DNA of 64,000 nt, taken from contig JAURZN010000095.1 in assembly GCA_030653355.1 (NCBI GenBank), positions 1 through 64,000 on the forward strand, in the 5' to 3' direction. Both the position numbers and the translations under genes were made by a program. Position 1 is the stretch's first letter. The number at the start of each line of letters is the position of its first letter. The DNA comes from Gallionella sp. Lineage in GTDB: Bacteria; Pseudomonadota; Gammaproteobacteria; Burkholderiales; Gallionellaceae. The notes beneath the pieces are model-generated. The model did not search any database. It was not told where the DNA came from and saw only the letters and a list, made by a program, of their open reading frames with translations. Shown here in pieces: positions 16,169 through 64,000 of the stretch.

Positions 16169-16567
16169 CTATCCCCACACCAGCGGCGGATCAACGGCCA
16201 TGTCGAATAGGATCGCATCGTCTGGCAGCGTATCATCCAAAATCGCCGCAATCGTCCACGGAGGCAGCAGGGTTAGGTTGATCATCTTACTTACATAGCT
16301 ACTGTCCACCCGCTCTCGGGTTGCCAGTTCGCGAATAGTGATTACCTCGCCCGATTCAAGCATCGTTCTCCAACGATAGCCACGAGCCAACGCCAATTGC
16401 ATCGACGTTGGTTTCAGTGGCAATTGTGCTGTACCCATTTCACCATTGGGAAGCGTGATTTTTTTGCACCCGCTCCGACGCTTGATCTTGATCGGGATGT
16501 TAAGCGTCAAAGTGCCGTTGCTGAACGGCACGGCCTCGGCGTGGCCTTCGATTTTGATGGAACTCAT
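16169..16567 (-). CDS. HTH protein of the recombinase cassette
   Basis: A 132-residue protein. Residues about 75-110 (EVITIRELATRERVDSSYVS) look like a KorB/ParB-type helix-turn-helix that ends in SKMINLTLLPP. Its start overlaps the recombinase stop by 4 bases, so the two are coupled. Small HTH proteins of this kind regularly follow serine recombinases in proteobacterial accessory regions. It may guide or regulate the recombinase, but the role is unknown. Confidence 0.65.
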   Translation of the reverse strand: MSSIKIEGHAEAVPFSNGTLTLNIPIKIKRRSGCKKITLPNGEMGTAQLPLKPTSMQLALARGYRWRTMLESGEVITIRELATRERVDSSYVSKMINLTLLPPWTIAAILDDTLPDDAILFDMAVDPPLVWG

Positions 16568-41566: not shown

Positions 41567-41817
41567 CCGCGCACATCGCCATGAGTACCGGTTGGTCGTG
41601 GGACACCATCGACCGGGAAATGGACTTGATGCGGCTTGCCGCGCTGAATCATTACTGGGACAGACATCCGCCGCTACACCTGATGGTGCAAAGCTATCTT
41701 GGCATCAAGCCGGTGTCGCGTAGTTTAGCTGCACGGCAACGGGAAGCGGACAACACGGAGCGGGATGTTCAGGAATTTGCCGAGATGTTTACAGCGGCAG
41801 GCGGACTTAGCGCTTGA
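41527..41817 (+). CDS. Tail assembly chaperone extension (gpT-like, -1 frame)
   Basis: The frame reads GGSRGELIDWDELTAHIAM and then STGWSWDTIDREMDLMRLAA, continuous through the ATG at 41581. This supports a G-T fusion made by frameshift rather than independent initiation, though ATG 41581 (78 residues) is an alternative. The C-terminus has AARQREADNTERDVQEF. In lambda the gpGT product binds the tape measure. Its 3' end overlaps the toxin gene on the other strand by 11 bases. Confidence 0.65.
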   Translation, partial: GGSRGELIDWDELTAHIAMSTGWSWDTIDREMDLMRLAALNHYWDRHPPLHLMVQSYLGIKPVSRSLAARQREADNTERDVQEFAEMFTAAGGLSA

Positions 41818-42085
41818 GATCGCGGTAAAAATTCTCGTGAGAACCTATAGCTTCCAGATAAACCAACTGGACACCTTCGTCGAGTGTGTAGCCCAGCAGA
41901 TAGAGCTGTCCTTGACTACGAAATTTGTAGACTAACAACTCAGCGAGATCACCTTTTTTACGCTCGCCGATGGAAGGTTTCTCAGCAACCAGTTCGACCG
42001 CATTATCGACATCTGCCGCGACGTTATCGTGTAGTTTCTTGTACTGACGGGCAAAGCGCCGCGTCTGTTCAACGGTGTAACTCAT
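41807..42085 (-). CDS. RelE/ParE-type toxin
   Basis: A 92-residue protein: MSYTVEQTRRFARQYKKLHD, AELLVYKFRSQGQLYLLGY and a final HENFYRDLKR, the fold pattern of RelE/ParE toxins. RelE types cleave mRNA and ParE types poison gyrase; the sequence alone does not decide. Its start overlaps the antitoxin stop by 4 bases. It is the only leftward pair inside the rightward late operon. Confidence 0.82.
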   Translation of the reverse strand: MSYTVEQTRRFARQYKKLHDNVAADVDNAVELVAEKPSIGERKKGDLAELLVYKFRSQGQLYLLGYTLDEGVQLVYLEAIGSHENFYRDLKR

Positions 42086-42309
42086 GCACAGCGACTGCGT
42101 GGCACGAACGGTGTTGCCTGATCGCGTGGCTCACGCATTGAGGCCAAAGCTTCCGCCACAAAACTAACTGGCAAATCCGGATTGTCGAGTGATGCACGAC
42201 CAATCATGGCCCAATACTCAATCTGTCCTGCGATTGTACGGTGCTCAACCTGTGCTTCGGTGCGCGCCTGCTCGTACAGCGTGTCGTCGATTCTAACTGG
42301 CATACCCAT
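42082..42309 (-). CDS. ParD-like antitoxin
   Basis: A 75-residue protein starting at ATG 42309 (MGMPVRIDDTLYEQARTEAQ) or 42303. The RTIAGQIEYWAMIGR segment is typical of ParD-like ribbon-helix-helix antitoxins. A palindrome CTAC-AAAA-GTAG (42333-42344) lies upstream, within a possible leftward promoter (TTTACA at 42356-42351), fit for autoregulation. Confidence 0.78.
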   Translation of the reverse strand: MGMPVRIDDTLYEQARTEAQVEHRTIAGQIEYWAMIGRASLDNPDLPVSFVAEALASMREPRDQATPFVPRSRCA

Positions 42310-42328
42310 TTTGGCTCTCCCAATAACA

Positions 42329-42356
42329 TTTACTACAAAAGTAGCGACATTGTAAA
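42329..42356 (-). promoter_or_regulatory. Possible promoter/operator of the toxin-antitoxin pair
   Basis: On the minus strand TTTACA (42356-42351) is followed about 15-17 bases on by TAGTAAAT-like sequence. The dyad CTAC-AAAA-GTAG at 42333-42344 overlaps it. This lies just before the tape measure start on the other strand. Weak consensus. Confidence 0.4.
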
Positions 42357-42371
42357 CCCGAAGGACTGAAT

Positions 42372-45101
42372 ATGGCAACCACCATCGGCACCCTCGAAAT
42401 CGAGATGGCCGCGAATATCGCGCGCCTGTCTGCCGATCTCGGGGCCGCACGCAATGAAGTCAACCGCACCATGGGTGAGATTCAGCGTTCGGTATCCAGC
42501 ATGCAGGATGGCATCCAGTCCGGCATGAACGGTGTCACGGCAGCGTTTGGCAAGGTCAATGTTGCCATCGCAGCCATCACCACGGCACTGGCCGGAGGTG
42601 CTGCCTTCAAGAGTGCTGTGGAAGAAACGGTCAACATGACCAAGGAAGCCAATGCGCTGGGTAAGTCACTCGGTATTTCGGCGACCGAAGCATCCATCCT
42701 CAACATCGCACTGGGCGACATCTACCAGTCCAGCGACACCATGCTGGCCGCAAACAAGGCGATGACGAAACAACTGGTCAGCAACGAGGACGCGTTCAAG
42801 TCCTTGGGCGTTGCCACCCGCGATCAGAACGGTCACTACCGCAACAGCCTGGACATCATGCTGGACGTGAACGGGCGGCTGCTCGCCTTCCGCGAAGGCA
42901 CGGATCGCAACATCGAAGGCATGAAGGTCTACGGCAAGGCGTGGGGTGAAGTTCAGGGCATCCTGAAACTCAACACCGAGTTGATGGAAGCCTCGCGCAC
43001 CAAGGCGCGTGAATTGGGGTTGGCCGTCGGCGCAGAAAACGTCGAAGCCACGGCACGCTATCGCGCCGCCATGAATGACGTGGGCGATGTGATCTCGGCT
43101 GTCCGCAAAACCATCGGTGATGCGATGCTGCCGCGCCTGACTGAAACCGCCAACTGGTTCGCCAATATCGGACCTCAGGCGGTCGAAGTCATGCGTGCCG
43201 TGATGGAAACTTTCGTATCCGTTTCCAGCAGCGTGAGTACCGTCGTTTCTGCCGCATGGAATGCAATTGCCGATGTCTTCGCCACGGTGGTCGAGGCAGT
43301 CAAAGCGGCGCTTGGCGATGGCAGTCCCTCGATCTCCGGCATGCAGTTGTTCAAGAACATGTGCGCCGTAGTCGAGATTGCGGTCATCGCCCTGCGCACC
43401 GGCTTTCAGGAGTCGTTCGCCGCGATTGGTCTGGCTGTTGAGCTGGTCGTGATCGGTCTGAAGGAGTTTAGCCAGATCGCTGCCGCTGCCCTCCGTCTCG
43501 ATTGGGCCGGAGTGAAGCAGGCATGGGCCGATGGTTCGGCAGCAGCTGCCGAAGCAGTGGAACGCAATGCCGCGCGTATGTCCAAGGCCGCCGCTCAGGC
43601 GCGTCAGGATATGGGTGCTGCCGTTGATCGTGCCTATGCTGACCCCAAGCAACCTACACCCACTCAGGCTAAAACCGGCGGCCAGCAATCGTCCGGCAAA
43701 ACCGACTCAGGCTCAAAACCCAAGTCGCGTATCAAGGATTTTGAGGCTGGACTTGTCGAACTCAAGGCCGCACGCGATCGCGAGAATGATCTCAATCACA
43801 CATTTTTTGAATTCTCCAAGGAACAAGAACGTACCTACTGGCAGAACATTCTGCAGACCCGCAATCTGTCCAAAGAGGAGCGGATTGCCGTAGAGCGCAA
43901 ACTGCTCGATGCCTCGCTGGCCGTACACAAGGAAGCAGCACAGGCCCAGCAGGAAGAGATCAAGCGCCAGATCGATGCCACCCGCGCAGGTTCGCTCGAG
44001 CGTGTTCAGCTCACCATGCAGGCCGCCGCCAAGATCGGCGAACAATACGGTCTGGAAAGTCGGGAATATCGCAAGGCGCAGGACGAGGTCCGCCGTGCCG
44101 CAATCGAACGCAGCAAGGAAATCGAAAAGCTCGAACAGATGCAGGTCGATGCCAGACGCAATGCCAGCCTGCACGGCCTTGCCATGGAACGTGACCGATT
44201 GAGTCAGTCAAAACAACTTGGCGACATTTCCGGCGCGGAAGAACTGGCCGCCCTGCGTGATCTGGAAGAGCGCAAATACCGCATCGAGCTGAAGGCTGCG
44301 GAGGATCGTGCCGCGCTGGTTGCGGCTGACCCGATCGCATACCAGCAGGCGATGGACAAGATATCCCAGATCAAACAGCAGCATGATCTGGAAATGCAGC
44401 GCAACAGTGCGGCGATGGCACTGGAACAACGTCAGGAAGCACTGCAGATGTTCCAGCCCTTCACCAACGCTTTTGAAAAAAGCGTCAACGGCATGATTCA
44501 GGGCACGCTCACTTTCAGTCAGGCGATGCGCAACATGGCGCAATCCATCGTGCTGGAGTTCGTCAACATGGGCGTGAAGATGGTGGCGCAATGGCTGGCT
44601 GCAGAAGCGGCCAAGACACTGGCTTCCCGGACCGGCACTGCGGTGCGCAGCACACTGGAACAATCTGCCGCCGTCGCCAGCAAGTCGATCGCGGTCACCA
44701 GTGCCAATGTGGAAATCGGTGCCAAGGCAGCCGGTGCCGCAGCGGGTGCGGCGCAATCCCAAGCCTCCATTCCGTTTGCCGGATGGGGACTGGCTGCCGC
44801 CGCGTTTGCCTCTGTCATGGCCTTGGTTCTGGGCGCGAAGAGTGTGGTCGCCTCGGCTGCTGGTGGTTTTGATATTCCGGCGGGCTTGAATCCGATGACG
44901 CAATTGCATGAGCGCGAGATGGTGCTGCCTGCCGAGCATGCGGACACCATTCGTGGCCTGTCCGGCACGGGCGGACAACAACCCATCAACATCCAGTTGA
45001 GCACGTTCGATACCCAAGGTGTGAAGCGCTTCCTGATGGACAACGGCAACGTGATCGCCGATTCCCTGCGTGCGCAGGCCAGAAACTTCAAAACCGTCTA
45101 A
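42372..45101 (+). CDS. Tape measure protein
   Basis: A 909-residue tail length protein. Helical throughout, with N-terminal coiled coil (EIEMAANIARLSADLGAARN), a hydrophobic centre (FVSVSSSVSTVVSAAWNAIA and neighbours), a long charged coiled coil at about 470-700, and a C-terminus with AAGGFDIPAGLNPMTQLHE and MVLPAEHADTIRGLSG typical of siphovirus tape measures. It sets tail length and helps DNA entry. Confidence 0.9.
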   Translation: MATTIGTLEIEMAANIARLSADLGAARNEVNRTMGEIQRSVSSMQDGIQSGMNGVTAAFGKVNVAIAAITTALAGGAAFKSAVEETVNMTKEANALGKSLGISATEASILNIALGDIYQSSDTMLAANKAMTKQLVSNEDAFKSLGVATRDQNGHYRNSLDIMLDVNGRLLAFREGTDRNIEGMKVYGKAWGEVQGILKLNTELMEASRTKARELGLAVGAENVEATARYRAAMNDVGDVISAVRKTIGDAMLPRLTETANWFANIGPQAVEVMRAVMETFVSVSSSVSTVVSAAWNAIADVFATVVEAVKAALGDGSPSISGMQLFKNMCAVVEIAVIALRTGFQESFAAIGLAVELVVIGLKEFSQIAAAALRLDWAGVKQAWADGSAAAAEAVERNAARMSKAAAQARQDMGAAVDRAYADPKQPTPTQAKTGGQQSSGKTDSGSKPKSRIKDFEAGLVELKAARDRENDLNHTFFEFSKEQERTYWQNILQTRNLSKEERIAVERKLLDASLAVHKEAAQAQQEEIKRQIDATRAGSLERVQLTMQAAAKIGEQYGLESREYRKAQDEVRRAAIERSKEIEKLEQMQVDARRNASLHGLAMERDRLSQSKQLGDISGAEELAALRDLEERKYRIELKAAEDRAALVAADPIAYQQAMDKISQIKQQHDLEMQRNSAAMALEQRQEALQMFQPFTNAFEKSVNGMIQGTLTFSQAMRNMAQSIVLEFVNMGVKMVAQWLAAEAAKTLASRTGTAVRSTLEQSAAVASKSIAVTSANVEIGAKAAGAAAGAAQSQASIPFAGWGLAAAAFASVMALVLGAKSVVASAAGGFDIPAGLNPMTQLHEREMVLPAEHADTIRGLSGTGGQQPINIQLSTFDTQGVKRFLMDNGNVIADSLRAQARNFKTV

Positions 45102-52659: not shown

Positions 52660-52824
52660 CACGATGATGTTTGGACATCCAACCTCTCATAACTTGGTGA
52701 ATACACGCATCCATTCGAATCAAACCCTACTTAATCATGTCAATTCATATTTACAATAGTCTGACACCATGCGAACATTAAGAAACTGCCCTTATTGCAA
52801 CTTTATTTTGTGGAAAACGATGTC
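52660..52824. other. AT-rich junction between lysis genes and defence operon
   Basis: No gene is seen. The base composition falls and the stretch is AT-rich (for example TCAATTCATATTTACAATAG). It is a plausible right end of the prophage, but no copy of the ssrA 3' end or of 14925-15110 was seen here, so an attachment site is not established. Confidence 0.4.
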
Positions 52825-53025
52825 ATGTCGGATCGCTGGCTGTCGGTCGAAGAGATAGCTGCATACCTAGGTGTCAGCAAAGACACCGTTTATGCGTGGA
52901 TCAATAAACGGAACATGCCTGCCCAACGCATCGGTCGGTTTTGGAAATTCAAAACGGATGAGGTTGATGAGTGGGTTCGTTCTGGTGGCGCAGCTGAAGG
53001 TAATGACCAAAGCAAGGACTCATAG
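52825..53025 (+). CDS. Excisionase-like HTH regulator
   Basis: A 66-residue protein starting at ATG 52825; a TTG at 52795 would add 10 residues. The MerR/excisionase-type fold is WLSVEEIAAYLGVSKDTVYA, then KRNMPAQRIGRFWKF and VDEWVRSG. Such proteins often precede restriction or methylation genes. It leads into dcm, with an inverted repeat between them, so it may control the operon. Confidence 0.75.
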   Translation: MSDRWLSVEEIAAYLGVSKDTVYAWINKRNMPAQRIGRFWKFKTDEVDEWVRSGGAAEGNDQSKDS

Positions 53026-53042
53026 ATCTTGCTATGCAGCCC

Positions 53043-53072
53043 GTTTTGACCCATTCATAGCGGTGTCAAAAC
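53043..53072. promoter_or_regulatory. Inverted repeat in front of dcm
   Basis: GTTTTGAC (53043-53050) is inverted at 53065-53072 (GTCAAAAC), separated by 14 bases. It contains a TTGACC -35-like element and ends 19 bases before the dcm ATG. It is a possible operator for the upstream HTH protein or for auto-control by the methyltransferase. Confidence 0.5.
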
Positions 53073-53091
53073 TAATATTTGGAGGTAAATG

Positions 53092-54132
53092 ATGTCGAAA
53101 ATTTCTTGTGTTGATCTATTCTGTGGCGCGGGGGGCCTGACGCACGGATTCGTACTAGAAGGACTGCCCGTCGTAGCCGGCATCGACATGGATCCGGCAT
53201 GCCGTTTTCCTTATGAGACAAACAACCAAGCTCAATTCATTGAGCGTGACATCAGCACAGTCACCGAATCTGAATTATTAGCCATCTTTGGTGACGCGGA
53301 CATAAAAGTCCTCGCTGGCTGTGCGCCATGTCAACCCTTCTCTACCTACGCTCATCGATATTCTCTCGACGGAGATGGCAAATGGGGGCTGCTATATGAG
53401 TTCGCTAGGCTTGCGAAGGGTACCAGACCTGACGTAATCACCATGGAGAATGTCCCAACCGTAGCGAAGCATGCAGTCTTTCACGACTTTGTGGATACGC
53501 TCGAAAAACTTGGCTATCACGTATGGTATGACGTTGTGAATAGCTCTCGGTATGGTGTACCTCAAGCTCGGCGACGCATGGTATTACTGGCCTCTCTTTA
53601 TGGAAAAATCGAAATCATCCCGCCTACACGCGAAAAACCCAAAACGGTTCGGGAGGCTATAGGTCGACTAAATCCGCTGAGTGCAGGCGAGGCAGCTCCC
53701 CGTGACAAGCTACATGCCTCATCAACCTTGACTGACATAAATCTCCAGCGTATCCGAGTCTCAAAACCTGGCGGCACATGGCGAGACTGGCCTGAACATC
53801 TCGTCGCCGAATGTCATCGTAGCGAAAGTGGGCGTACCTATCCAAGTGTTTATGGCCGTATGGAATGGGACAAGCCAGCCCCGACCATGACGACACAGTG
53901 CTTCGGATTCGGCAATGGACGTTTCGGCCACCCGGAACAAGACCGTGCTATTTCGTTGCGCGAGGCTGCAATCCTTCAGAGCTTTCCGCGCGATTACGCT
54001 TTCATCCCAGAAGGTGTTGAAGTGAGCTTCACCACCTTGGGGCGCCTCATCGGCAATGCCGTTCCTGTAGATCTAGGACGCGCTATTGCAAAGAGTATCA
54101 ACTCACATCTTTCATCGGTAAAAGATCGTTGA
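53092..54132 (+). CDS. dcm: DNA C5-cytosine methyltransferase
   Basis: A 346-residue enzyme. All key motifs are present: DLFCGAGGLT (motif I, residues 8-17), GCAPCQPFS with catalytic Cys80 (IV), ENVP (VI, residue 119), QARRRMV (VIII), and GNAVPV (X). A short target domain lies between VIII and IX. ATG 53092 fits GGAGG spacing better than ATG 53089. The Vsr gene follows directly, as for cytosine methylases whose deamination must be repaired. Site specificity cannot be read. Confidence 0.93.
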   Translation: MSKISCVDLFCGAGGLTHGFVLEGLPVVAGIDMDPACRFPYETNNQAQFIERDISTVTESELLAIFGDADIKVLAGCAPCQPFSTYAHRYSLDGDGKWGLLYEFARLAKGTRPDVITMENVPTVAKHAVFHDFVDTLEKLGYHVWYDVVNSSRYGVPQARRRMVLLASLYGKIEIIPPTREKPKTVREAIGRLNPLSAGEAAPRDKLHASSTLTDINLQRIRVSKPGGTWRDWPEHLVAECHRSESGRTYPSVYGRMEWDKPAPTMTTQCFGFGNGRFGHPEQDRAISLREAAILQSFPRDYAFIPEGVEVSFTTLGRLIGNAVPVDLGRAIAKSINSHLSSVKDR

Positions 54133-54614
54133 GTCACATGGCGAGGGCTATCTTGATGTCGCGCATAGAACCCTCGTCACCCGAAGCCAGCCGACGTATG
54201 GCCAAAGTTCGGCAGAAAGGAACAGGGTCTGAGCTAGCTTTTCGACGAGAACTATACCGAAACGGCTTGCGGTATCGAATCAACTTTTGTGTCATGAAAA
54301 AACCACGCAGAGTCGCGGATATTGCATTCCCTCGCCTCAAGATTGCTATATTCATTGATGGATGTTTCTGGCACGGTTGCCCGGAACATGCCACATGGCC
54401 GAAACAGAACGCCGAGTTTTGGCGAAATAAGATCGAAACGAATCGAGCGCGCGACATCGATACCGATGTGAGACTCGATGCGCTTGGCTGGAAGGTAGTT
54501 CGAATGTGGGAGCACGAATCACCAGTGGCTGCTGCAGAATCAATATCGGATCTGGTCGCAAAGACCAAGGTGGAATGCCTCAAATCGTCACCCAACTCGA
54601 ATGAAAGAAATTGA
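54129..54614 (+). CDS. vsr: Very short patch repair (Vsr) endonuclease
   Basis: A protein of up to 161 residues. SPEASRRMAKVRQKGTGSEL, ADIAFPRLKIAIFIDGCFWH and HGCPEH are the Vsr signatures, with FIDGCFWHGCPEHATWPKQN close to the E. coli active site. It nicks at T:G mismatches left by deaminated 5-methylcytosine. TTG 54129 overlaps the dcm stop as TTGA; ATG 54138 or 54156 are alternatives. A TTGA junction also links it to the next gene. Confidence 0.9.
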   Translation: MSHMARAILMSRIEPSSPEASRRMAKVRQKGTGSELAFRRELYRNGLRYRINFCVMKKPRRVADIAFPRLKIAIFIDGCFWHGCPEHATWPKQNAEFWRNKIETNRARDIDTDVRLDALGWKVVRMWEHESPVAAAESISDLVAKTKVECLKSSPNSNERN

Positions 54615-57600
54615 CTGAGGATATGATCGGACGCATGGAAATCTCAAACACTGGAATCTGCGAGTCCTACCGTGCTCGGCCTGAACCTGGTCAGTTGGTA
54701 GAAGTGCGTCGCCGCCAGTGGGTCGTCGCCGACGTAACTTCATCCAAGCTTGAATCGAATGCCGCTCCTCAGCATAATGTTTCATTATCGTCTATCGACG
54801 AGGATGGCCTCGGCGAGGAGCTGGAGGTCATTTGGGAGATAGAGCCGGGCGCGCAGGTCATCGAGCGTGCAGGTCTGCCTTCGATCACCGGACAGGATGA
54901 CTCAGACACCCTCGAAGCGTTTCTCGATGCAGTGCGCTGGGGCGCTGCAACCAATGCAGATAGGGGTTTCCTCCAAGCGCCATTCCGCAGTGGCGTCAGC
55001 ATCGAGGATTTCCAACTCGACCCACTGGTTCGAGCCATCGACATGGCTCGCGTCAATCTGCTCATCGCTGACGACGTTGGCTTGGGCAAGACCATCGAGG
55101 CCGGACTCGTCATCCAAGAGATGTTGTTGCGGCACCGTGCCCGCACCGTCCTGATCGTCTGCCCCGCATCGCTGCAAGAGAAGTGGCGCGTGGAGATGCT
55201 GGAAAAGTTTGGCCTCGATTTCAGGGTTGTCGACACGGGCTACATCAAGCAGTTGCGCCGAGAGCGAGGCATCCACGCCAACCCCTGGACTTCGCATCCG
55301 CGCCTGATCGCATCCATGGACTGGGTCAAAAGCGGTGAAGGCTTGCGCGCCATGCGCGACGTTCTGCCTGCGCACACCAGCTATCCACGCAAATTCGACA
55401 TGCTCGTCGTCGACGAAGCACACAACATCGCCCCCGCTGCCGGTGTGAACTACGCGCTGGAGAGCCAGCGCACGCGCTTCATTCGTTCGATCAGTCCGCA
55501 CTTCCAGCATCGGCTATTCCTCACGGCCACACCGCACAACGGCTACACCGAATCCTTTACTTCTCTGCTGGAGTTGCTGGACGACCAGCGTTTCGCCCGA
55601 AACATCCTTCCCGATGAAAAGCAGTTGAGTCAGGTGATGATCCGCCGCCTCAAAAGCGACCTGGTAGATGCCGAAGGCAAGCCGCTCTATGCACAGCGCA
55701 AGTTGCAAGCGCTGCTGGCCTCGTATTCCCCACAAGAGCGCGCCATTCACCAAAAGCTGAACGACTACTGCGCGAGCCGCGAGCAGGATGCCGAAAAGGT
55801 CGGCAATACGTTCGGCACGTCGTTCGTCAACCAGTTGCTCAAGAAGCGGCTCTTTTCTTCTCCCGCCGCTTTCGCATCCACCCTTGAGAAGCACATTGCC
55901 AGTCTGGCCAATGGCAGCCAACGCAAGGACAAGGATGCAATGACCGACCGCATTTTGCGCAAAGCCATCCTGCGGGTAGATGAAGATTACGCCAACGAGC
56001 AGGAGGTCGAAAACGCCCAGTCCGAGGCCGTAGAAGAAGCCTCACGTCGCGCGCAACCGCTGACAGCAGACCAACAACAAATGCTGAACGACCTGCGGTC
56101 GTGGGCTCAGACGGCCAAAAACCAGGTCGACGCCAAAGCCAAGGCGATCCTCGGCTGGCTCACAACCAATCTCAAGACCGACGGTCAGTGGAATGATCGC
56201 CGGGTCATCTTGTTCACCGAATATCGCACCACTCACCAGTGGATGCACGAGATTCTCGCCAGCCACGATTTCGCTGGCGATCGACTGGCCACCCTTCATG
56301 GCAGCATGCCGCAGGATGAGCGCGAGAAGATCAAAGCAGCCTTCCAGACTTCACCCAAAGATTCAGCAGTCCGCATCCTGCTGGCCACCGATGCCGCATC
56401 CGAAGGTATCGACTTGCAGAACCACTGTAACTGCCTCATCCATCTGGAGATACCTTACAACCCCAATGTGATGGAGCAGCGCAATGGCCGTATCGACCGG
56501 CACGGTCAGCGCCAGAAGGAAGTGTTGATCTGGCACCCCGTCGATGGCGGCGAACAGGGCAAAGCAACCATTGGCGGCCACGGTGACGACATCATCCGTG
56601 CACTGCGCAAACTCGAATCCATGCGTGCGGACATGGGCAGCGTCAACCCGGTCATCGCGCCACAAATGTCGGGGCTGATCGAAGGCTCACTCAAAGACCT
56701 CGACACCCGCTTGGCTGAAGCCAAAATCGCCAAGGCCAGACGCTTTGTGCGCGCCGAGCGCGAACTGAAAGATCGAGTCGCCAAGCTGCACGAACGGCTC
56801 CTCACCACGCAGCAAGATTTCCACCTCACACCAGAGCATATCCTCATGGCGGTCAAGACAGGCCTCGCGTTGGCAGGCCGCCCCCCGCTCGAGCCTTTTA
56901 CCTTGGCTGATGCTCCGGCGGGGAGCGTATTCAAGATGCCCGCGCTGTCGGGCTCGTGGGCGCGTTGCCTCGAAGGGCTGCGCCACCCCCACACACTGCA
57001 AATTCGGCCCATCACCTTCGATCATGCCGTCGCCACGGGGCGTGACGACGTAGTGCTGGTTCACCTCAACCATCGACTGGTGCAGATGTGTCTGCGCTTG
57101 CTGCGCGCCGAGGTCTGGGCACAAGACGATGTGAAGAAGTTGCATCGCGTCACGGTGCGTTCGGTGCCGGACGCACTGATCGACGGGCCTGCCGTAGTCG
57201 TCATCTCGCGGCTGGTCGTCACTGGCGGAAACCATCATCGCCTCCATGAAGAGCTGACGGTGGCAGGAGGCTATCTGGGGGATAAATCCTTCCGTCGAGA
57301 AGAAGGCGTCACCAAAGTCCAGCAATGGCTGGATCAGGCCAAGCCACTTACTGCCGCAGATTCGCTGTTCGATGCCATCCGTGTACGTTTCGACCGTGCT
57401 CAAAGCGCTATTTTGCAGTCGGTCGACGCCCGTTCAAAAGACAGGCTCAAGTTCCTGACCAACACCCTTCAATCCCGCAAGCAGCAGGAAGTGGCCGACA
57501 TTGGCACCGTACTTGATGAACTTGAAAAAGCCATTCAAGCCGAATTGAGAAAAGATCAGCAACCGGCGCAGCTTTCCCTGTTCTCGGAAGACGAACGAAC

Positions 57601-57772
57601 ACAGCTCAGGCGCGACACCGCCGCACTTGAAGCCCGCTTGGCCCGCATTCCGGGTGAGCGCGAACAAGAGGCTCAAGCCATCGAAACCCGCTATGCACAA
57701 CTCAATGATCGCACCTTCCCGGTTGCTGTCATTTTCATCATTCCTGCATCTCTGTCGAGGGTAGTAAAATGA
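54611..57772 (+). CDS. drmD: DrmD-like SNF2 helicase (DISARM class 1 type)
   Basis: A protein of up to 1053 residues. The N-terminus PGQLVEVRRRQWVVADV with LGEELEVIWEIEPGA is characteristic of DISARM DrmD. Walker A DDVGLGKTIEAG near residue 156, VVDEAHNIAP near 265, TATPHNGYTE near 306, and QRNGRIDRHGQRQ near 624 are the SNF2 helicase motifs. The C-terminus is a long coiled region with a glutamine-rich end. TTG 54611 overlaps the vsr stop (TTGA); ATG 54623 is an alternative. In class 1 DISARM DrmD pairs with DrmMI; both partners are here but DrmA, DrmB and DrmC are not in the window. Confidence 0.85.
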   Translation: MTEDMIGRMEISNTGICESYRARPEPGQLVEVRRRQWVVADVTSSKLESNAAPQHNVSLSSIDEDGLGEELEVIWEIEPGAQVIERAGLPSITGQDDSDTLEAFLDAVRWGAATNADRGFLQAPFRSGVSIEDFQLDPLVRAIDMARVNLLIADDVGLGKTIEAGLVIQEMLLRHRARTVLIVCPASLQEKWRVEMLEKFGLDFRVVDTGYIKQLRRERGIHANPWTSHPRLIASMDWVKSGEGLRAMRDVLPAHTSYPRKFDMLVVDEAHNIAPAAGVNYALESQRTRFIRSISPHFQHRLFLTATPHNGYTESFTSLLELLDDQRFARNILPDEKQLSQVMIRRLKSDLVDAEGKPLYAQRKLQALLASYSPQERAIHQKLNDYCASREQDAEKVGNTFGTSFVNQLLKKRLFSSPAAFASTLEKHIASLANGSQRKDKDAMTDRILRKAILRVDEDYANEQEVENAQSEAVEEASRRAQPLTADQQQMLNDLRSWAQTAKNQVDAKAKAILGWLTTNLKTDGQWNDRRVILFTEYRTTHQWMHEILASHDFAGDRLATLHGSMPQDEREKIKAAFQTSPKDSAVRILLATDAASEGIDLQNHCNCLIHLEIPYNPNVMEQRNGRIDRHGQRQKEVLIWHPVDGGEQGKATIGGHGDDIIRALRKLESMRADMGSVNPVIAPQMSGLIEGSLKDLDTRLAEAKIAKARRFVRAERELKDRVAKLHERLLTTQQDFHLTPEHILMAVKTGLALAGRPPLEPFTLADAPAGSVFKMPALSGSWARCLEGLRHPHTLQIRPITFDHAVATGRDDVVLVHLNHRLVQMCLRLLRAEVWAQDDVKKLHRVTVRSVPDALIDGPAVVVISRLVVTGGNHHRLHEELTVAGGYLGDKSFRREEGVTKVQQWLDQAKPLTAADSLFDAIRVRFDRAQSAILQSVDARSKDRLKFLTNTLQSRKQQEVADIGTVLDELEKAIQAELRKDQQPAQLSLFSEDERTQLRRDTAALEARLARIPGEREQEAQAIETRYAQLNDRTFPVAVIFIIPASLSRVVK

Positions 57773-58401
57773 TGACTTGGCAGGAATACCAAGAAGCCGT
57801 CGCCGTGCTCTATGAGCAAACCGATGGATTCGGAAATGTCAGCAGGAATGTCATGGTGCCGGACAAGATTACCGGTCAGCCACGGCAAATTGACGTGCTG
57901 ATCGAAATCAAGGCCAAGGGACACGCCTTAAGGATGATCGTCGATGCCAAGTTCCATGCCGTCCCCATTGATGTGAGGGATGTCGAATCAGTTCTTGCGC
58001 TCGCAGATGCAGTTGGCGCAAATAAAGCCATCGTCGTCGCGGCGAATGGCTGGACTGAGCCTGCCAAGAAAAAAGCAGAACATGTCGGATGCTCTCTCGA
58101 ACTGCTCTCAGTCGAAGAGGCCTTGGATCTGATCGTTCCAGACAAATGGAAGATGTGCCCTTCCTGCGGTGTAGATTGCATCGTGCTTGATCAAGAAGGG
58201 GCGGTAACGTTCGAAGGAGGTTCTTGGTTCTGGTGGCTTGCCGGTCAGTGTCGCGGATGTAAAAACGCGCGCATCCACTGCCAAGACTGCGGAGTGAAGG
58301 CGTATATTGATCTCGGTGAATCAATGGTCTGCGGATGCGGGCACCGATGGTCTAGCGCCCACGAAGGTATCAAGATTGCATTTTTCGAGGAGCAATCTTA
58401 A
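57769..58401 (+). CDS. Mrr-like restriction nuclease with zinc ribbons
   Basis: A 210-residue protein. An Mrr-type PD-(D/E)XK fold at residues 1-118 has its active site in QIDVLIEIKA (Asp42) and MIVDAKFHAV (Asp59, Lys61), with DVESVLALADAVGANKAIVV. The C-terminal 80 residues carry CPSC, CRGC, CQDC and CGCG, two zinc-ribbon pairs. Its ATG overlaps the helicase stop as ATGA, and its stop overlaps the methyltransferase start by one base. It is not part of the classic DISARM gene set and may be the effector nuclease here. Confidence 0.8.
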   Translation: MMTWQEYQEAVAVLYEQTDGFGNVSRNVMVPDKITGQPRQIDVLIEIKAKGHALRMIVDAKFHAVPIDVRDVESVLALADAVGANKAIVVAANGWTEPAKKKAEHVGCSLELLSVEEALDLIVPDKWKMCPSCGVDCIVLDQEGAVTFEGGSWFWWLAGQCRGCKNARIHCQDCGVKAYIDLGESMVCGCGHRWSSAHEGIKIAFFEEQS

Positions 58402-61400
58402 TGATGACGCCGATTCAACACCACGATTGGCTGTCGCTGATCGAGATCTCCGGCCCTTTCCTCGCAGTTCCCGTTCTGAAGGAAGCCTTTCCACAAGGGC
58501 TGGAAGAACTTGATGCCACCAAGCGCAAACGTCTGCGCCAAGCCTACGAGGAGTGGCGCGAAGCGCTGGAGCTGGAAGACGCCCAGTTCGCCGAGTTGCA
58601 CGTAGCATGGATCGACGAAGTGCTGTCGCGAGGACTTGAACTCGACGAAGACGGCAGAGGCGATGTTCTCAAGCGCGCTGACTGGTGCGCAGCCAACCTC
58701 CAAGCCAGCTTGCCAGAACACGGCGTGACGCTGTCGCCTAGTCTTGCGGTGATTGATGAGCAATGCGCCAACAAGCCACTGCTGCTGATCCAAACCTATC
58801 CGCAGGATGTCGACCTCGGTACAACCCTGAAGCTAGACGGCTGGGCCGCCACACCCGCCGATCGCATGGTGCAGTTGTGTCGTTCATTGGGTTGTCGCCT
58901 CGGGCTGTTGACCAATGGCGAGCGCTGGATGCTGGTGGATGCCCCGGTGGGTGCCGTTACCACCTTTGCCAGTTGGTATGCCCGCATCTGGAGCCAAGAG
59001 CCCATCACTCTGCAAGCCTTCGTGCACTTGCTCGGCATTCGTCGTTTCTTTGTCGACGAATCCGAACAATTGCCCGCGCTGTTCGATCGCTCACTGAAAT
59101 TTCAGGACGAAGTTACCGATGCCCTTGGCGAGCAGGTACGCCGCGCCGTCGAAGTATTGATCCAGTCGCTCGACAAGGCCGATCAGGACCGCAATCGTGA
59201 GCTCCTGCACGACGTCAAGGAACCTGAGCTCTATGAGGCCGCGCTTACGGTGATGATGCGCTTGGTATTCCTTCTCTCCGCCGAGGAGCGTGGTCTGCTC
59301 CTGATGGGTGACGAGCGCTACGAAGCCAACTACGCGCTCTCGACCTTGCGCATGCAGTTGCGCAAAGAATCAGAGGAGATCCTCGAGCGCCGCTGGGATG
59401 CTTGGTCGCGTTTGCTGGCGATCTTCCGCGCAGTGTTTGGTGGTATCGAGCATGAGAACTTGCGCCTGCCCGCACTGGGCGGATCGCTATTCGATCCGGA
59501 TCGCTTCCCTTTCCTCGAAGGCCGAGCCAAGGGCTCCAACTGGCGCACCGATGCAGCCAAGCCGCTGCCTATCGACAACCGTACCGTGCTGTTGTTGCTG
59601 CAGGCCATTCAGCAATTTCAGGGCCGCACGCTGTCTTACCGCGCACTGGATGTCGAACAGATCGGCTACGTGTATGAAGGCTTGCTCGAACGCACCGTCA
59701 AGCGCACCGATGAGGTCACGCTAGAACTGGATGCCACCAAGAGCGCCAAGACTCCATGGATCAAGCTGGCCGAGCTAGATTCGGCGCGCTTGGATGGTAC
59801 CGCGCGACTGGCCGAGTTGCTGCAAGAGCGCTCCGGCAGCTCTGCCAGCCGAGTGCGCAATGATCTGGCCAAACCCGTCGATGACACCTTGGCCGATCGC
59901 CTACTGACAGCTTGCCAAGGCGACACCAAGCTCCGCGACCGTGTCAAACCATATGCCCATCTGCTGCGCACCGACCCATGGGGCTATCCGCTGGTGTATC
60001 CCGCCGGAGCCTTCATCGTCACCACCGGATCCGACCGACGCGAAACCGGTACCCACTACACCCCGAAATCGCTGACCGAATCGATCGTCGTCGAGACCCT
60101 CACGCCAGTGGCCTATGTCGGCCCGGCAGAGGGAACGCCGCGCGAGCAATGGGCGCTGAAGTCTCCTTCTGAACTGCTTGACCTCAAAATCTGCGACCCG
60201 GCCATGGGCTCGGGTGCCTTCTTGGTTCAAGCCTGCCGCTGGCTGGCTGATCGCGTCCTCGAGTCATGGTCACAGGTTGAGGTTTTGGGTAAAACCGTGA
60301 GTGTGGATGGCGAGATTCTGGAAGCAGGAGCGGCCAAGGAACCCCTACCCCGCGACAGCGAAGCACGCACGGTAATCGCACGCCGCCTCATCGCCGAACG
60401 TTGTCTGTACGGAGTCGACTTGAACCCGCTGGCCGTCGAACTCGCCAAGCTGTCCATCTGGCTGGTGACACTGGCAAAGGATCGCCCGTTTGGCTTCCTC
60501 GACCACAACCTGCGCTGCGGTGACAGTTTGTTGGGTATCCATCGACTGGATCAGCTCACTGAATTGAGCATGACGCCCGACGGCAAAGGGCAGCAACGCT
60601 TGTTTGGCAAGAACATCGAAAAAGCCGTTATTGAGGCAATTGAGCTACGCCAGAGTTTGCGCGACATGCCGATTCGCGACATCCATGATGTTGAGGCCAT
60701 GGCGCAATTGGACGCAAATGCGCGACAGAAGCTAGAAATACCTGAACTCATCGCTGACGCGCTGGTTGGAGAGGTGCTTGCGACAGTTGGAAATGACTAC
60801 GCTTTGAAAAATGGACTGTCATCACTTGCTATTCATGCTGGGCAAGCAATCAGCGGCGATGAAGCAGCATTTAGAACAATAGCTCTCCGAGCAAACACAA
60901 CACTTGCTTTTGATTTACCCGTAGGCAAGCCAATACGGAAGCCGTTTCATTGGCCGCTGGAGTTCCCCGAAGTATTGTCAGGCTTCAATTGTGGGTTTGA
61001 TGCTTTTATTGGCAATCCGCCATTTGCTTTTGGAAAAAACGTAAGCACAAGTTGCGGCACTTCCTACAACTCGTTCCTGGTTTTAACCAATCCTGCTGCC
61101 ACAAAAAACGTCGATCTTTGCGCCCATTTTTTTCATTGTGCTTTTGTTCTCCTTAACAGCGATGGAGCGCAGGGCATGCTTGCGACATCCTCAATCGCCG
61201 AGGGTGAGACCAGACTCGCCGCCCTAGAAAATCTTATTTCTGCCGGAGGGACTATATATTCAGCCACATCAAAGTCAAAGTGGCCTGGCGCTGCGAATGT
61301 TTTCATATGTCGCGTGTCACTTTCGAAGCGCAAATGGCAGGGGGTATTCACTCTTGACGGGAAATACGTCAAGGGTATCTCATCTTTTCTGACTCCAGAC

Positions 61401-62498
61401 ACCAACTGGCAACCAGTGTCCCTGTTTGAAAATCAAGGTATCGCATTTTATGGAGCCATCCCCAATGGTGATGGATTCCTCATTTCACGAGCTGAAGCTG
61501 AGACTTTATTAACCAAACACCCAGATCACCACAAGGTTCTTTATCCATTTCTAACAGGAAAAGATCTCAACTCCAATCCCACTCAATCTGCGAGCCGCTT
61601 TGCGATTAATTTTTGGGACTGGAATGAAAATGTCGCCTCAAAATTCAAAGATGCTTTCCAAATTGTGAGTGACCGGGTAAAGCCATATCGAGAGACTCTA
61701 AAAAACACAAAGCCGAAGCTTGCTACGAAATGGTGGATTTACGAGGCCAATCCAAAAGGATTGCATGATGCTATTGGAAGGGGTGAACACTTTCATGGTG
61801 GAGCAACGAAAACTACGCTAAAGGAGGTTCTGGTTATCGCGAGAGTGAGCAGTACCAATGCATTCACGTTCGTGAACCCGAATCAAGTTTTTGACTGCGC
61901 ACTGATCGTTGTCGCGTCTGATGATTATGGAATTTTTGCGGTCCTTCAGAGCAGCATTCATTTTGCATTTGCATGGCAGCACGGAGGGAAAATGAAATCC
62001 GACCTCCGCTACAGTCCTACGATGTGTCTGGCAACATTTCCTTTCCCGAAGCCTGACAATTATGAGCAGCTACGATTAATTGGGCACTCATTTAATGAAC
62101 GACGGCAAAGCATTCTCACAAAGCGTGAATGGGGTTTAACTCGCCTATCCAATTCACTTCATGATCCAGATTGCAGTGAGTCTGATATTCAGAAGTTACG
62201 CTCCTGCCTAGCAGATTTGGACATAAATGTATTGGAAGCCTATGGCTGGTTGGACATTAAACTAAATCACGACTTCCACCATGTGGATTATCTTCCTGCG
62301 GGTCGGAATCTTCGTTACACGATATCCGAGCCTGCACGCATTGAAATTCTTCGTCGCCTTGCCGATTTGAACCTCCAGCGGCATAAAGAAGAGGCTATTC
62401 AAAGCTCTCTTGCAAGAAATTCAGATAAAAGTGCTCCGAAACCAAGGCGTACCTCGTCAGTGCTTATCAGCGACCTATTTGGCGGAGACAACGCATGA
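58401..62498 (+). CDS. Large adenine-specific DNA methyltransferase (Eco57I / DrmMI type)
   Basis: A 1365-residue enzyme. A long N-terminal region (to about residue 540) of the DrmMI type leads to TGTHYTPKSLTESIVVETL near 550, motif I KICDPAMGSGAFLVQAC near 597, and LYGVDLNPLAVELAKLSIW near 665. Motif IV NPPFAFGKN is near 870. The C-terminal part looks like a target recognition domain. Base composition drops clearly after about 60600, so the target domain may have been replaced by recombination. In class 1 DISARM this protein would protect host DNA. Confidence 0.87.
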   Translation: MMTPIQHHDWLSLIEISGPFLAVPVLKEAFPQGLEELDATKRKRLRQAYEEWREALELEDAQFAELHVAWIDEVLSRGLELDEDGRGDVLKRADWCAANLQASLPEHGVTLSPSLAVIDEQCANKPLLLIQTYPQDVDLGTTLKLDGWAATPADRMVQLCRSLGCRLGLLTNGERWMLVDAPVGAVTTFASWYARIWSQEPITLQAFVHLLGIRRFFVDESEQLPALFDRSLKFQDEVTDALGEQVRRAVEVLIQSLDKADQDRNRELLHDVKEPELYEAALTVMMRLVFLLSAEERGLLLMGDERYEANYALSTLRMQLRKESEEILERRWDAWSRLLAIFRAVFGGIEHENLRLPALGGSLFDPDRFPFLEGRAKGSNWRTDAAKPLPIDNRTVLLLLQAIQQFQGRTLSYRALDVEQIGYVYEGLLERTVKRTDEVTLELDATKSAKTPWIKLAELDSARLDGTARLAELLQERSGSSASRVRNDLAKPVDDTLADRLLTACQGDTKLRDRVKPYAHLLRTDPWGYPLVYPAGAFIVTTGSDRRETGTHYTPKSLTESIVVETLTPVAYVGPAEGTPREQWALKSPSELLDLKICDPAMGSGAFLVQACRWLADRVLESWSQVEVLGKTVSVDGEILEAGAAKEPLPRDSEARTVIARRLIAERCLYGVDLNPLAVELAKLSIWLVTLAKDRPFGFLDHNLRCGDSLLGIHRLDQLTELSMTPDGKGQQRLFGKNIEKAVIEAIELRQSLRDMPIRDIHDVEAMAQLDANARQKLEIPELIADALVGEVLATVGNDYALKNGLSSLAIHAGQAISGDEAAFRTIALRANTTLAFDLPVGKPIRKPFHWPLEFPEVLSGFNCGFDAFIGNPPFAFGKNVSTSCGTSYNSFLVLTNPAATKNVDLCAHFFHCAFVLLNSDGAQGMLATSSIAEGETRLAALENLISAGGTIYSATSKSKWPGAANVFICRVSLSKRKWQGVFTLDGKYVKGISSFLTPDTNWQPVSLFENQGIAFYGAIPNGDGFLISRAEAETLLTKHPDHHKVLYPFLTGKDLNSNPTQSASRFAINFWDWNENVASKFKDAFQIVSDRVKPYRETLKNTKPKLATKWWIYEANPKGLHDAIGRGEHFHGGATKTTLKEVLVIARVSSTNAFTFVNPNQVFDCALIVVASDDYGIFAVLQSSIHFAFAWQHGGKMKSDLRYSPTMCLATFPFPKPDNYEQLRLIGHSFNERRQSILTKREWGLTRLSNSLHDPDCSESDIQKLRSCLADLDINVLEAYGWLDIKLNHDFHHVDYLPAGRNLRYTISEPARIEILRRLADLNLQRHKEEAIQSSLARNSDKSAPKPRRTSSVLISDLFGGDNA

Positions 62499-62611
62499 TC
62501 GCACTACAGCAGGCCAGACAGGTGCCAGAGTTCGCACAGGAAGCCGTCTCACAATTCTTGAAAGAGTTTGAAATGATCAAGGCAGGAAGTATCGGAGCTT
62601 TTGATGACTAG
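62495..62611 (+). CDS. 38-residue ORF between methyltransferase and GHKL ATPase
   Basis: The frame starts at ATG 62495, overlapping the methyltransferase stop as ATGA, and ends at TAG 62611. It encodes an amphipathic helical peptide (ARQVPEFAQEAVSQFLKEFE) ending in GAFDD. The coupled start and the fixed spacing to the next gene suggest that it is real. It may be a small partner or an immunity-like peptide. No homologue is known to me. Confidence 0.5.
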   Translation: MIALQQARQVPEFAQEAVSQFLKEFEMIKAGSIGAFDD

Positions 62612-62620
62612 GAAAACCAC

Positions 62621-64000
62621 ATGACTGACACATACAAAATGACCGTGGATCTGAACGTACTCGATCATCTCGGAATCAACCTCTACAGCAACATCGCAGC
62701 CGTCCTGACCGAGGCCGTGGCGAATGCTTGGGATGCGGATGCAGAAATCGTTGAAATCAAGATTGATCCGGACAATAACTGGATCGAAATCACCGACGAC
62801 GGCATCGGTATGTCGGTTGACGACATGAACGGCAAATATCTTCGAGTCGGTTATAGACGGCGCGACGAAGATGCCCAGAACGGCAGAACGACTGCCAAGG
62901 GGCGCCCCGTCATGGGCCGCAAGGGACTTGGCAAACTCTCCCTATTCTCGATTGCGAACATCATCAATGTGCAGTCGGCGAAAGATGGTCAGGCTCACGG
63001 ACTGAAGATGACCGTCGATGGCATCCACGAATCAGTCCAAAAGAAAGAACCTTTCTACAGCCCAGAATCTCTGCCACCTGCACAGGTAACTGTATCGAAA
63101 GGTACACAGATCGTCCTCTCTGATATCAAGCGTCAGCGCTTGGGACGTGGTGTGCTCGCACTGCGCAAACGTCTGGCCCGGCGCTTTTCAGTCATTGGAG
63201 AAACCCACGGGTTCAAAATCAATATTGACGGGCAACCTGTCACATCAGCAGATCGAGGTGATCTCCCGATGGTTCAGTTTCTTTGGAATTTTGAGGACTA
63301 CGAACCTGATTTGACATCGGCCACTCAACTCTTGGAGCAGGAGTCTCTACCCAATCGTCTTGAAGCTTGGGAGGCTGACTGGAAAGTCAGTGGCTGGATC
63401 GGCACGGCAAGGTTTCCAAAACAATTGGATAGTGAAGAAGCTGGCAATCTAAACGGCATCGTCGTATTCGCACGCGGACGATTATTCCACGAAAACATCC
63501 TCGACAAGCTCAACGATGGTAGGCTCTATACGAAATATCTCACTGGACAGATTGAGGCGAATTTCCTCGATGCTGACGATGCACCGGATATTGCGACCAG
63601 CGATCGTCAACGCGTTCAGGAGGATGATCCACGATACGGTCAGCTCATTGCATTTCTGAGATCATGCCTAGTACAAGTCGAGAAACGATGGAGCGAATGG
63701 CGCAAGAAACACGAAGTCGAGAAAGCCAAGGAAACCTCACCCGCACTGGCCGAGTGGCTCGACTCACTACCCGTCGGTTACAAAAAAAGTGCCGAGACGC
63801 TTATCTCTAAATTGAGCGCGCTGCCCGTCGATGACGAAGAGGATCGCAAGCTGATGTACCGGCATGGCATCCTCGCATTCGAACGGATGAAGCTCCGTGG
63901 CTCAACCGATGAGTTGGCCACGAGCGTCGAGAGTGTGGAAAAACTACTCACCATCCTTGCCGACCGAGACTCGCTCGAAGCATCACTCTATCGCGACATC
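62621..64000 (+). CDS. GHKL-type ATPase (MutL/MORC-like), 3' end outside window
   Basis: At least 460 residues, open to the window edge. The ATP-binding fold is EAVANAWDADAEIVEIKI (Glu31, Asn35, Asp38), ITDDGIGMS (residues 57-65) and MGRKGLGKLSLFSIANI (residues 98-114), the N, G1 and G2 boxes of GHKL ATPases. The transducer-like part (KINIDGQPVT, then IVVFARGRLFHEN) follows. Prokaryotic MutL relatives of this kind are linked to Dcm, Vsr and SNF2 genes in work on the origin of MORC ATPases. It begins 9 bases after the small ORF. The full length is unknown. Confidence 0.88.
   Translation, partial: MTDTYKMTVDLNVLDHLGINLYSNIAAVLTEAVANAWDADAEIVEIKIDPDNNWIEITDDGIGMSVDDMNGKYLRVGYRRRDEDAQNGRTTAKGRPVMGRKGLGKLSLFSIANIINVQSAKDGQAHGLKMTVDGIHESVQKKEPFYSPESLPPAQVTVSKGTQIVLSDIKRQRLGRGVLALRKRLARRFSVIGETHGFKINIDGQPVTSADRGDLPMVQFLWNFEDYEPDLTSATQLLEQESLPNRLEAWEADWKVSGWIGTARFPKQLDSEEAGNLNGIVVFARGRLFHENILDKLNDGRLYTKYLTGQIEANFLDADDAPDIATSDRQRVQEDDPRYGQLIAFLRSCLVQVEKRWSEWRKKHEVEKAKETSPALAEWLDSLPVGYKKSAETLISKLSALPVDDEEDRKLMYRHGILAFERMKLRGSTDELATSVESVEKLLTILADRDSLEASLYRDI

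What the first reader, a model, noticed from the sequence alone, without database searches (positions are those of the whole stretch)
52825..64000. Composite defence operon joining Dcm-Vsr, a DrmD helicase, an Mrr-zinc nuclease, a DrmMI-like methylase and a GHKL ATPase
The sequence shows the gene order and overlaps directly: HTH, dcm, vsr, drmD, Mrr-like, adenine methyltransferase, 38-aa ORF, GHKL ATPase. Known class 1 DISARM is drmD, drmMI, drmA, drmB, drmC. Known MORC-related systems link a GHKL ATPase with Dcm, Vsr and an SNF2 helicase. Here parts of both are packed in one operon with two methyltransferases of different base specificity, and drmA-drmC are not within the window. My inference is a hybrid restriction system in which the helicase and ATPase act with the Mrr nuclease.
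Basis: partly seen in the sequence, partly recalled or inferred. Interest (0 to 1): 0.85.

Follow-up and report, generated by a model that had tools for sequence, protein, structure and literature searches.

The report
DISARM operon with exchangeable weapon slots
This is a complete operon of the known DISARM type, predicted to defend bacteria against viruses, with two extra genes for likely DNA-cutting enzymes sitting between its core genes; relatives carry different genes at the same places, so the system likely works as a fixed base that takes exchangeable weapons.

Summary
The reported gene order is real, but the window cuts the operon short. The 'GHKL ATPase' is a BbrUII/HgiDII-family restriction enzyme (864.7 bits, cut-off 550) with a MORC-like head and a C-terminal D...ExK motif. 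The 38-aa ORF is the tail of a lost KAP-NTPase gene. In 74 class 1 loci the drmMI-drmA junction is an exchangeable slot: 53 hold identified cargo, including three GHKL families that never co-occur, and stacked cargo keeps one order in 20 of 20 pairs. Dcm is a resident of the chassis. Its target-recognition region resembles that of methylases beside free-standing relatives of the GHKL enzyme, and it is the only Dcm at 55% identity or more found in 17 of 17 other genomes with the enzyme near DISARM, and the only C5 methylase found in the window's genome. Best reading: a type II restriction enzyme plugged into DISARM that likely uses DISARM's own m5C mark. Specificity and activity are untested.

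The parts
52795..53025 (+). HTH/excisionase-type regulator, MAD1-like (ATG start 52825)
   Evidence: Pfam HTH_17 64 bits; NF047737 MAD1 76.7 bits, below its cut-off of 80
53089..54132 (+). dcm: m5C DNA methyltransferase, PADLOC DrmMII-like; PCQ, ENV and QARRR motifs present
   Evidence: PADLOC DrmMII 300.5 bits, TIGR00675 above cut-off, motifs
54129..54614 (+). [quoted passage not shown]
   Evidence: TIGR00632 106.1 bits, cut-off 97.85
54611..57772 (+). drmD: SNF2-like helicase of class 1 DISARM
   Evidence: NF038317 1416 bits, cut-off 610
57769..58401 (+). Mrr-type PD-(D/E)xK nuclease with C-terminal CxxC pairs, inserted in slot 1 (drmD-drmMI)
   Evidence: PF04471 36.5 bits; CxxC at 130, 161, 171; absent from sister locus L004
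58401..62498 (+). drmMI: MmeI-like adenine methyltransferase of class 1 DISARM
   Evidence: PADLOC DrmMI 1869 bits; DPAMGSG and NPPF motifs
62495..62611 (+). 38-aa ORF: remnant of the C-terminal tail of a KAP-NTPase gene, scar of former slot-2 cargo
   Evidence: matches the KAP tails of six loci, e.g. residues 690-730 of the 730-residue frame in L039;
62621..64000 (+). GHKL-nuclease of the BbrUII/HgiDII restriction-enzyme family in slot 2 (drmMI-drmA); the gene ends 576 bases beyond the window, at contig C1 64576
64000..64000 (+). Marker only: the operon continues beyond the window on contig C1 with drmA 64586-68569, drmB 68566-70431 and drmC 70433-71194, all on the + strand
   Evidence: NF038325 1516.5 bits (cut-off 950), NF038324 771 bits (240), NF038319 250 bits (133); PDB 7s9v DrmA 2502.5 bits; DrmC HxKxxxxD motif

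Best explanation
This is a complete class 1 DISARM operon whose two gene junctions drmD-drmMI and drmMI-drmA carry inserted genes for an Mrr-type nuclease and a BbrUII/HgiDII-family GHKL restriction enzyme, and the restriction enzyme is predicted to cut incoming DNA at TCGA-cored sites that the operon's own cytosine methyltransferase (Dcm) likely protects in the host. Shown by sequence: the complete drmD-drmMI-drmA-drmB-drmC set; the two inserts; gene-exact exchange of the inserts against a sister locus; the exchangeable drmMI-drmA slot in relatives; and the kinship of this Dcm's target-recognition region with that of methylases beside free-standing relatives of the GHKL enzyme. Inferred: Dcm and DrmMI mark self DNA; Vsr repairs the T:G mismatches that arise from deaminated m5C; DrmAB, with DrmD, loads on unmarked phage DNA as described for the Serratia system; the MORC-like head clamps DNA in an ATP-dependent way and directs the C-terminal D...ExK nuclease to unmethylated sites; Mrr is a further nuclease. 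In this reading Dcm serves two masters, DISARM and the plugged-in restriction enzyme, and the slot is where the chassis changes weapons.
For: Complete DISARM. Enzyme identity: NF050001 864.7 vs cut-off 550; D532/E546/K548 invariant; MORC heads are the top rows of the structural second look. Gene-exact exchange: sister locus L004 is 85-87% DNA-identical in three blocks (drmD, drmMI, drmABC) broken where Mrr and the 38-aa ORF+GHKL sit; L004 has PDC-S39 there, and no Mrr, dcm or vsr in its 24-kb stretch. R-M pairing: 9 of 10 free-standing relatives (34-42% identical) whose surroundings I counted lie beside a Dcm; the recognition region of the 7 of these Dcms that were aligned is 61-68% identical to the window's, against 22-37% for five other C5 methylases. 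Dependence: the operon's Dcm is the only PF00145 protein found in the window's genome (89% complete); in 17 of 17 other genomes with the enzyme near DISARM it is the only Dcm at 55% identity or more, and in 13 of the 17 the only match. DISARM specialisation: 18 DISARM-linked enzymes (window included), two of them at other positions (L054, L083), are one supported set (98/96) apart from 8 free-standing ones. TCGA core: M.HgiDII is an m5C methylase of GTCGAC (PMC5867850, passages) and the Serratia DISARM m5C motif is YMT(mC)GAKR (PMC9142583, passages).
Against: No activity or methylation motif is measured. GTCGAC does not fit YMTCGAKR, so only the TCGA core is shared and the exact site is unknown. 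The Dcm recognition region is as conserved in DISARM loci that lack the enzyme, and on the Dcm tree the enzyme's presence is hardly clustered (14 changes, shuffled mean 16.2, 44 of 500 shuffles as low), so Dcm is not kept for this enzyme. Dcm and the enzyme are not adjacent as in free-standing pairs. Inside DISARM the Dcm-enzyme association is not significant by itself (17 of 17 against 41 of 46, Fisher p 0.31). One free-standing relative (L115) has no Dcm beside it; the Dcm of the Deinococcus locus L116 is only 46% identical in the recognition region; one genome (G405) has a second, 42% identical Dcm and three others weaker matches. The structure model is modest (mean pLDDT 67.6), and Foldseek itself ranks Hsp90 chains above MORC.
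Confidence: 0.55

Rival explanations
1. The GHKL (MORC-like) head is a DISARM-coupled adaptor, and what goes with it is an exchangeable effector: a nuclease domain here, a TIR-like domain or a separate PF20553 protein in relatives. DISARM activation, not a restriction site, would trigger it.
For: Three GHKL families (BbrUII-type 15, GHKL-TIR 8, paraMORC-like with a PF20553 partner 13) occupy the same slot in 36 of 74 loci and never together (expected 5.6 overlaps if independent, P 0.00065, not corrected for phylogeny). GHKL-TIR proteins are 27% identical overall to this enzyme and share the ATP-site motifs. Mrr occurs only with a GHKL gene (7 of 7 assessable).
Against: Free-standing relatives sit beside a Dcm with no DISARM annotated near them; the paraMORC-like family was not joined to the other two by BLAST at 1e-8; the TIR assignment rests on matches to SpbK and its structure model is poor.
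Confidence: 0.25
2. Plain nesting: the junctions are neutral landing places where any defence gene can ride on the DISARM promoter, with no functional tie to DISARM or Dcm.
For: Cargo is very mixed: AspBHI-like, PifA-like KAP, PDC-S39, Schlafen-type helicase, DRT-type reverse transcriptase, PD-T7-1-like, NsnA-like; many match models of defence genes or candidates that occur on their own.
Against: Stacking order is fixed in 20 of 20 pairs (classes defined after seeing the order), GHKL families exclude one another, and the DISARM-linked BbrUII-type enzymes sampled are one lineage, found near DISARM even outside the slot.
Confidence: 0.17
3. One reading: parts of DISARM and of a MORC system fused into a new restriction machine without drmA-drmC.
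For: Gene content inside the window taken alone.
Against: drmA, drmB and drmC follow directly on the contig.
Confidence: 0.02

Closest known systems
Class 1 DISARM (Serratia sp. SCBI operon, PMC9142583, passages seen)
   Same: drmD, drmMI, drmA, drmB, drmC all present; an m5C and an m6A methylase both present; DrmA matches PDB 7s9v over its whole length at 2502 bits
   Different: Mrr nuclease and GHKL restriction enzyme inserted between core genes. The near-Serratia locus L014 (DrmA 2882 bits to 7s9v) has both junctions empty
BbrUII/HgiDII-type type II R-M (GHKL restriction enzyme + m5C methylase)
   Same: GHKL enzyme far above the family cut-off; Dcm related to the partner methylases in its recognition region
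   Different: Methylase and restriction enzyme are split by vsr, drmD, mrr and drmMI instead of adjacent; the enzyme belongs to a DISARM-linked branch
MORC/paraMORC R-M operons (Iyer et al. 2008, PMC2292703, sections 4 and 5 read)
   Same: GHKL-S5 head, C-terminal nuclease of the E-D-ExK kind (their paraMORC3), company of m5C methylase, Vsr and helicases; they also describe a GHKL-TIR family (paraMORC4)
   Different: The two sections read name no DISARM, slot or exchange of cargo
ARMADA/Druantia/DISARM family of YprA helicases (PMC12458937, outline and passages)
   Same: Related DISARM helicases, Vsr-type domains, defence islands on mobile elements
   Different: Vsr there is a helicase-fused domain; the main text has no occurrence of GHKL, MORC, Mrr, DrmD or DrmMI

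Membership tests
Class 1 DISARM | drmA helicase | tested here: met
   NF038325 1516.5 bits, cut-off 950
Class 1 DISARM | drmB | tested here: met
   NF038324 771 bits, cut-off 240
Class 1 DISARM | drmC | tested here: met
   NF038319 250 bits, cut-off 133
   NF038317 1416 bits; PADLOC DrmMI 1869 bits
Class 1 DISARM | anti-phage activity | not testable with these tools
   no experiment
BbrUII/HgiDII restriction-enzyme family | NF050001 score over the curated cut-off | tested here: met
   864.7 vs 550 bits
BbrUII/HgiDII restriction-enzyme family | partner m5C methylase of related recognition type | tested here: met
   recognition region 61-68% identical to 7 partner methylases; the partner is in the operon but not adjacent
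BbrUII/HgiDII restriction-enzyme family | cleavage at GTCGAC or another TCGA-cored site | not testable with these tools
   no biochemistry
MORC family proper | MORC-specific motif in the S5 domain (PMC2292703, section 4) | not tested
   only fold similarity seen; called MORC-like, not MORC
MADS defence system | MAD1 regulator over the NCBIfam cut-off | tested here: not met
   76.7 vs 80 bits

The most novel reading that the evidence does not exclude
Class 1 DISARM is a modular weapons platform: Dcm/Vsr and the drm genes form a constant targeting chassis, and the drmMI-drmA junction is an ordered rack with three allelic positions (S39/KAP type, then a MORC-headed GHKL module, then AspBHI/second-DrmD type). 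The GHKL modules read the chassis' m5C mark and bring interchangeable killing parts (nuclease, TIR-like or a partner enzyme). This would supply the missing executioner of DISARM.
Probability: 0.25. Interest if true: 0.82.

Novelty: new variant of a known kind. Interest (0 to 1): 0.62.

Why it matters
The authors of the DISARM structure paper write that how DrmAB brings a nuclease to foreign DNA has remained a mystery, since DrmC is dispensable, and suggest that DISARM may mix and match components (PMC9142583, passages). Here a defined place inside the operon holds nucleases and other effectors, swaps them with gene-exact borders, and keeps an order. That makes the question directly testable by swapping or deleting slot cargo in a fixed chassis. 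It also suggests how a type II restriction enzyme could enter a genome safely: by borrowing a methylase that a larger system already maintains.

Tried and rejected
Hybrid without drmA-C: rejected by the contig. GHKL as a bare ATPase: rejected. 38-aa ORF as a functional small protein: not supported; it matches a KAP-NTPase tail. MAD1/MADS membership of the HTH: below cut-off. Co-transfer of Dcm with the enzyme: not supported. Dcm-enzyme association by presence/absence: not significant. Borders of the mobile element: unresolved. The left flank is tmRNA 14557-14924; copies of its 3' end lie inverted at 76117-76150 and 76423-76450; the tmRNA flanks of relatives did not show an empty site. So I cannot say whether DISARM lies inside the prophage or beside it. 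E. coli genomes: no match to drmMI DNA. Phage records: one of six matching records covers 80% or more of drmMI, at 30.5% identity. IMG/VR gave 4 loci; L123 and L124 were read, L125 is the same contig as L076, L126 was not read. Of 433 plasmid records matching DrmMI I opened four (H36, H37, H38, H44). Searches of 399 order and 398 phylum genomes (G000 among both) found no further member of the DISARM-linked enzyme branch apart from the window, so its absence outside DISARM is little tested. TIR-domain model: mean pLDDT 54, not used. The structural second look covers mainly residues 3-368, so the nuclease part rests on sequence motifs. Literature: the listings did not point to a description of the slot; passages of PMC8565338 and PMC4618763 held nothing on it; the founding DISARM paper is not held, so priority is not settled.
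Full report
WHAT IS THERE. The window is bases 1-64000 of a 98,898-base contig. All eight reported genes are present, on one strand and tightly packed. The contig continues with the end of the GHKL gene (to 64576), drmA 64586-68569, drmB 68566-70431 and drmC 70433-71194, each over its curated NCBIfam cut-off. The operon is therefore a complete class 1 DISARM: drmD, drmMI, drmA, drmB, drmC, headed by HTH-dcm-vsr, with two inserts. DrmA matches the solved Serratia DrmA (7s9v) over its whole length at 2502 bits. The motifs I looked for in Dcm, Vsr, DrmD, DrmMI, GHKL, Mrr and DrmC are present; DrmA and DrmB were not checked for motifs.

CENSUS. A genome scan with DrmMI kept the best 80 of 422 confirmed loci. 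In 74 of the 80, drmMI and drmA lie on one stretch. Cargo of identified families sits between them in 53 of 74: BbrUII-type GHKL-nuclease 15, paraMORC-like GHKL with a PF20553 protein 13, GHKL-TIR 8, PDC-S39 8, AspBHI-like modification-dependent nuclease 7, PifA-like KAP NTPase 6, second DrmD-like helicase plus a 565-aa protein 6, and rarer ones (one, L023, only a truncated piece); 21 have none of these, three of them with scars, several with unresolved gaps of 300-550 bases. The TIR label rests on SpbK matches only. The three GHKL families never share a locus (expected 5.6 overlaps, P 0.00065 in 20,000 draws over 74 loci; relatedness ignored). Where cargo stacks (16 loci), the order S39/KAP/P594, then GHKL, then second DrmD/AspBHI/others holds in 20 of 20 pairs, and no locus has two of the first or two of the last class. 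I defined these classes after seeing the order. Loci outside the 80: IMG/VR contig L123 has Dcm, Vsr, KAP, then the BbrUII-type enzyme, then drmA, and L124 has the cargo pair of L011; the Microvirga plasmid L157 has an ATP-binding protein and an 'O-methyltransferase' in the slot; Deinococcus and Nocardia plasmids have an empty junction; an Oscillatoria plasmid has xisI/xisH genes there and a hypothetical gene between drmD and drmMI. The drmD-drmMI junction varies too: Mrr in 8 of 80 loci, a Schlafen-type helicase in 3, others. Mrr occurs only with a GHKL gene (7 of 7 assessable; hypergeometric p 0.005, uncorrected).

EXCHANGE IS GENE-EXACT. The sister locus L004 (Rhodoferax; 94% protein identity over 4340 columns) is 85-87% identical in DNA in three blocks (window 54631-57760, 58424-62500, 64582-71196) whose inner ends fall at the gene ends flanking Mrr and the 38-aa ORF+GHKL insert. 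L004 has PDC-S39 in the slot, and no Mrr, dcm or vsr in its 24-kb stretch. On a tree of 73 chassis (72 loci and the window; quick search, some long branches; two loci with the enzyme, L006 and L025, dropped for incomplete drmA) the GHKL state needs at least 25 changes (shuffled mean 31.9, none of 200 as low), and the BbrUII type 11 (shuffled mean 13.1, 30 of 500 as low): some inheritance, much exchange. Scars show deletion within stacks: L075 joins the first 57 residues of an S39 protein to the last 52 of a BbrUII-type enzyme; L028, L029, L053 and L056 keep other ends. The window's 38-aa ORF is such a scar, the tail of a KAP NTPase, in the place where L025, L040 and L043 have KAP before the same enzyme.

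A SPLIT RESTRICTION-MODIFICATION PAIR. I counted the surroundings of ten free-standing relatives of the enzyme (34-42% identical); nine lie beside a Dcm (L085, L086, L114, L117-L120, L155, L156; not L115). Not counted: plasmid hits H8 and H9 (not opened), H10 and H11 (26-28% identical, both with a Dcm beside them), L087 and L088 (below the family cut-off), and L116, which lies next to DISARM. The 130-residue recognition region of the window's Dcm is 61-68% identical to the seven of these partner methylases that were aligned, 62-85% to DISARM Dcms, 46% to that of L116, and 22-37% to five other C5 methylases. M.HgiDII is an m5C methylase of GTCGAC (PMC5867850, passages). The Serratia DISARM m5C motif is YMT(mC)GAKR (PMC9142583, passages; I assign the motif to the methylase by the methylated base). 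L014, whose DrmA scores 2882 bits against Serratia's, has a Dcm with 81% identity to the window's in this region; the Serratia Dcm itself was not compared. The operon's Dcm is the only PF00145 protein found in the window's genome. In 17 of 17 other genomes with the enzyme near DISARM it is the only Dcm at 55% identity or more, and in 13 of 17 the only match; G405 has a second at 42% and three genomes have weaker matches. All 17 have Dcm in the locus, against 41 of 46 without the enzyme (p 0.31, not significant). On the Dcm tree the enzyme is scattered: Dcm belongs to the chassis and the enzyme plugs in. The 18 DISARM-linked enzymes (window and 17 loci, Proteobacteria and one Syntrophobacteraceae genome), two of them outside the slot, form one supported set (98/96); the Deinococcus one falls among the free-standing eight.

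HOW IT LIKELY WORKS. Shown: anatomy, family membership, exchange, recognition-region kinship. From published work on Serratia DISARM: DrmAB binds 5'-overhang DNA, and its ATPase is less stimulated by m5C-methylated DNA (PMC9142583, passages). Inferred: Dcm and DrmMI mark self; Vsr offsets m5C mutagenesis; the GHKL enzyme cuts unmarked TCGA-cored sites; Mrr adds a nuclease. The main rival is that the GHKL head couples swapped effectors to DISARM itself. Against my reading: the shared core is only TCGA, Dcm's recognition region is as conserved where the enzyme is absent, and nothing is measured.

LIMITS. The census is weighted to close relatives of this DrmMI, loci are not independent, exclusivity and order were not corrected for phylogeny, and the founding DISARM paper could not be read.

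Noticed in passing
window 16567-52660: Prophage beside the operon: serine-type integrase (16567-17916, -), terminase, major head, tape measure and tail genes; whether DISARM is its cargo is unresolved.
   Followed up: partly
contig C1 71199-74586 (beyond the window): Two ParB-like genes and a second serine recombinase follow drmC on the other strand; the same trio precedes DISARM in L037, and ParB genes precede it in L048.
   Followed up: partly
window 14557-14924 and C1 76117-76150, 76423-76450: tmRNA gene and two inverted partial copies of its 3' end, as past integrations could leave.
   Followed up: partly
window 15220-16158: AbiH abortive-infection gene just after the tmRNA (PF14253 247 bits).
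   Followed up: no
window 41807-42450 (-): ParE/ParD-like toxin-antitoxin pair between prophage tail genes.
   Followed up: no
L029, L055, L068, L081, L082: AspBHI-like nucleases, expected to need modified cytosine, sit in DISARM loci that also carry the m5C methylase; how self-cutting is avoided is unclear.
   Followed up: no
L064:12822-19136, L080:3711-5156: A UG5-type reverse transcriptase (DRT) and a PD-T7-1-like gene occupy the DISARM slot.
   Followed up: no
L116 / L158 (Deinococcus plasmid p96k): BbrUII-type enzyme, Dcm and Vsr sit just beyond drmC instead of in the slot: a separate association of the same trio with DISARM.
   Followed up: partly
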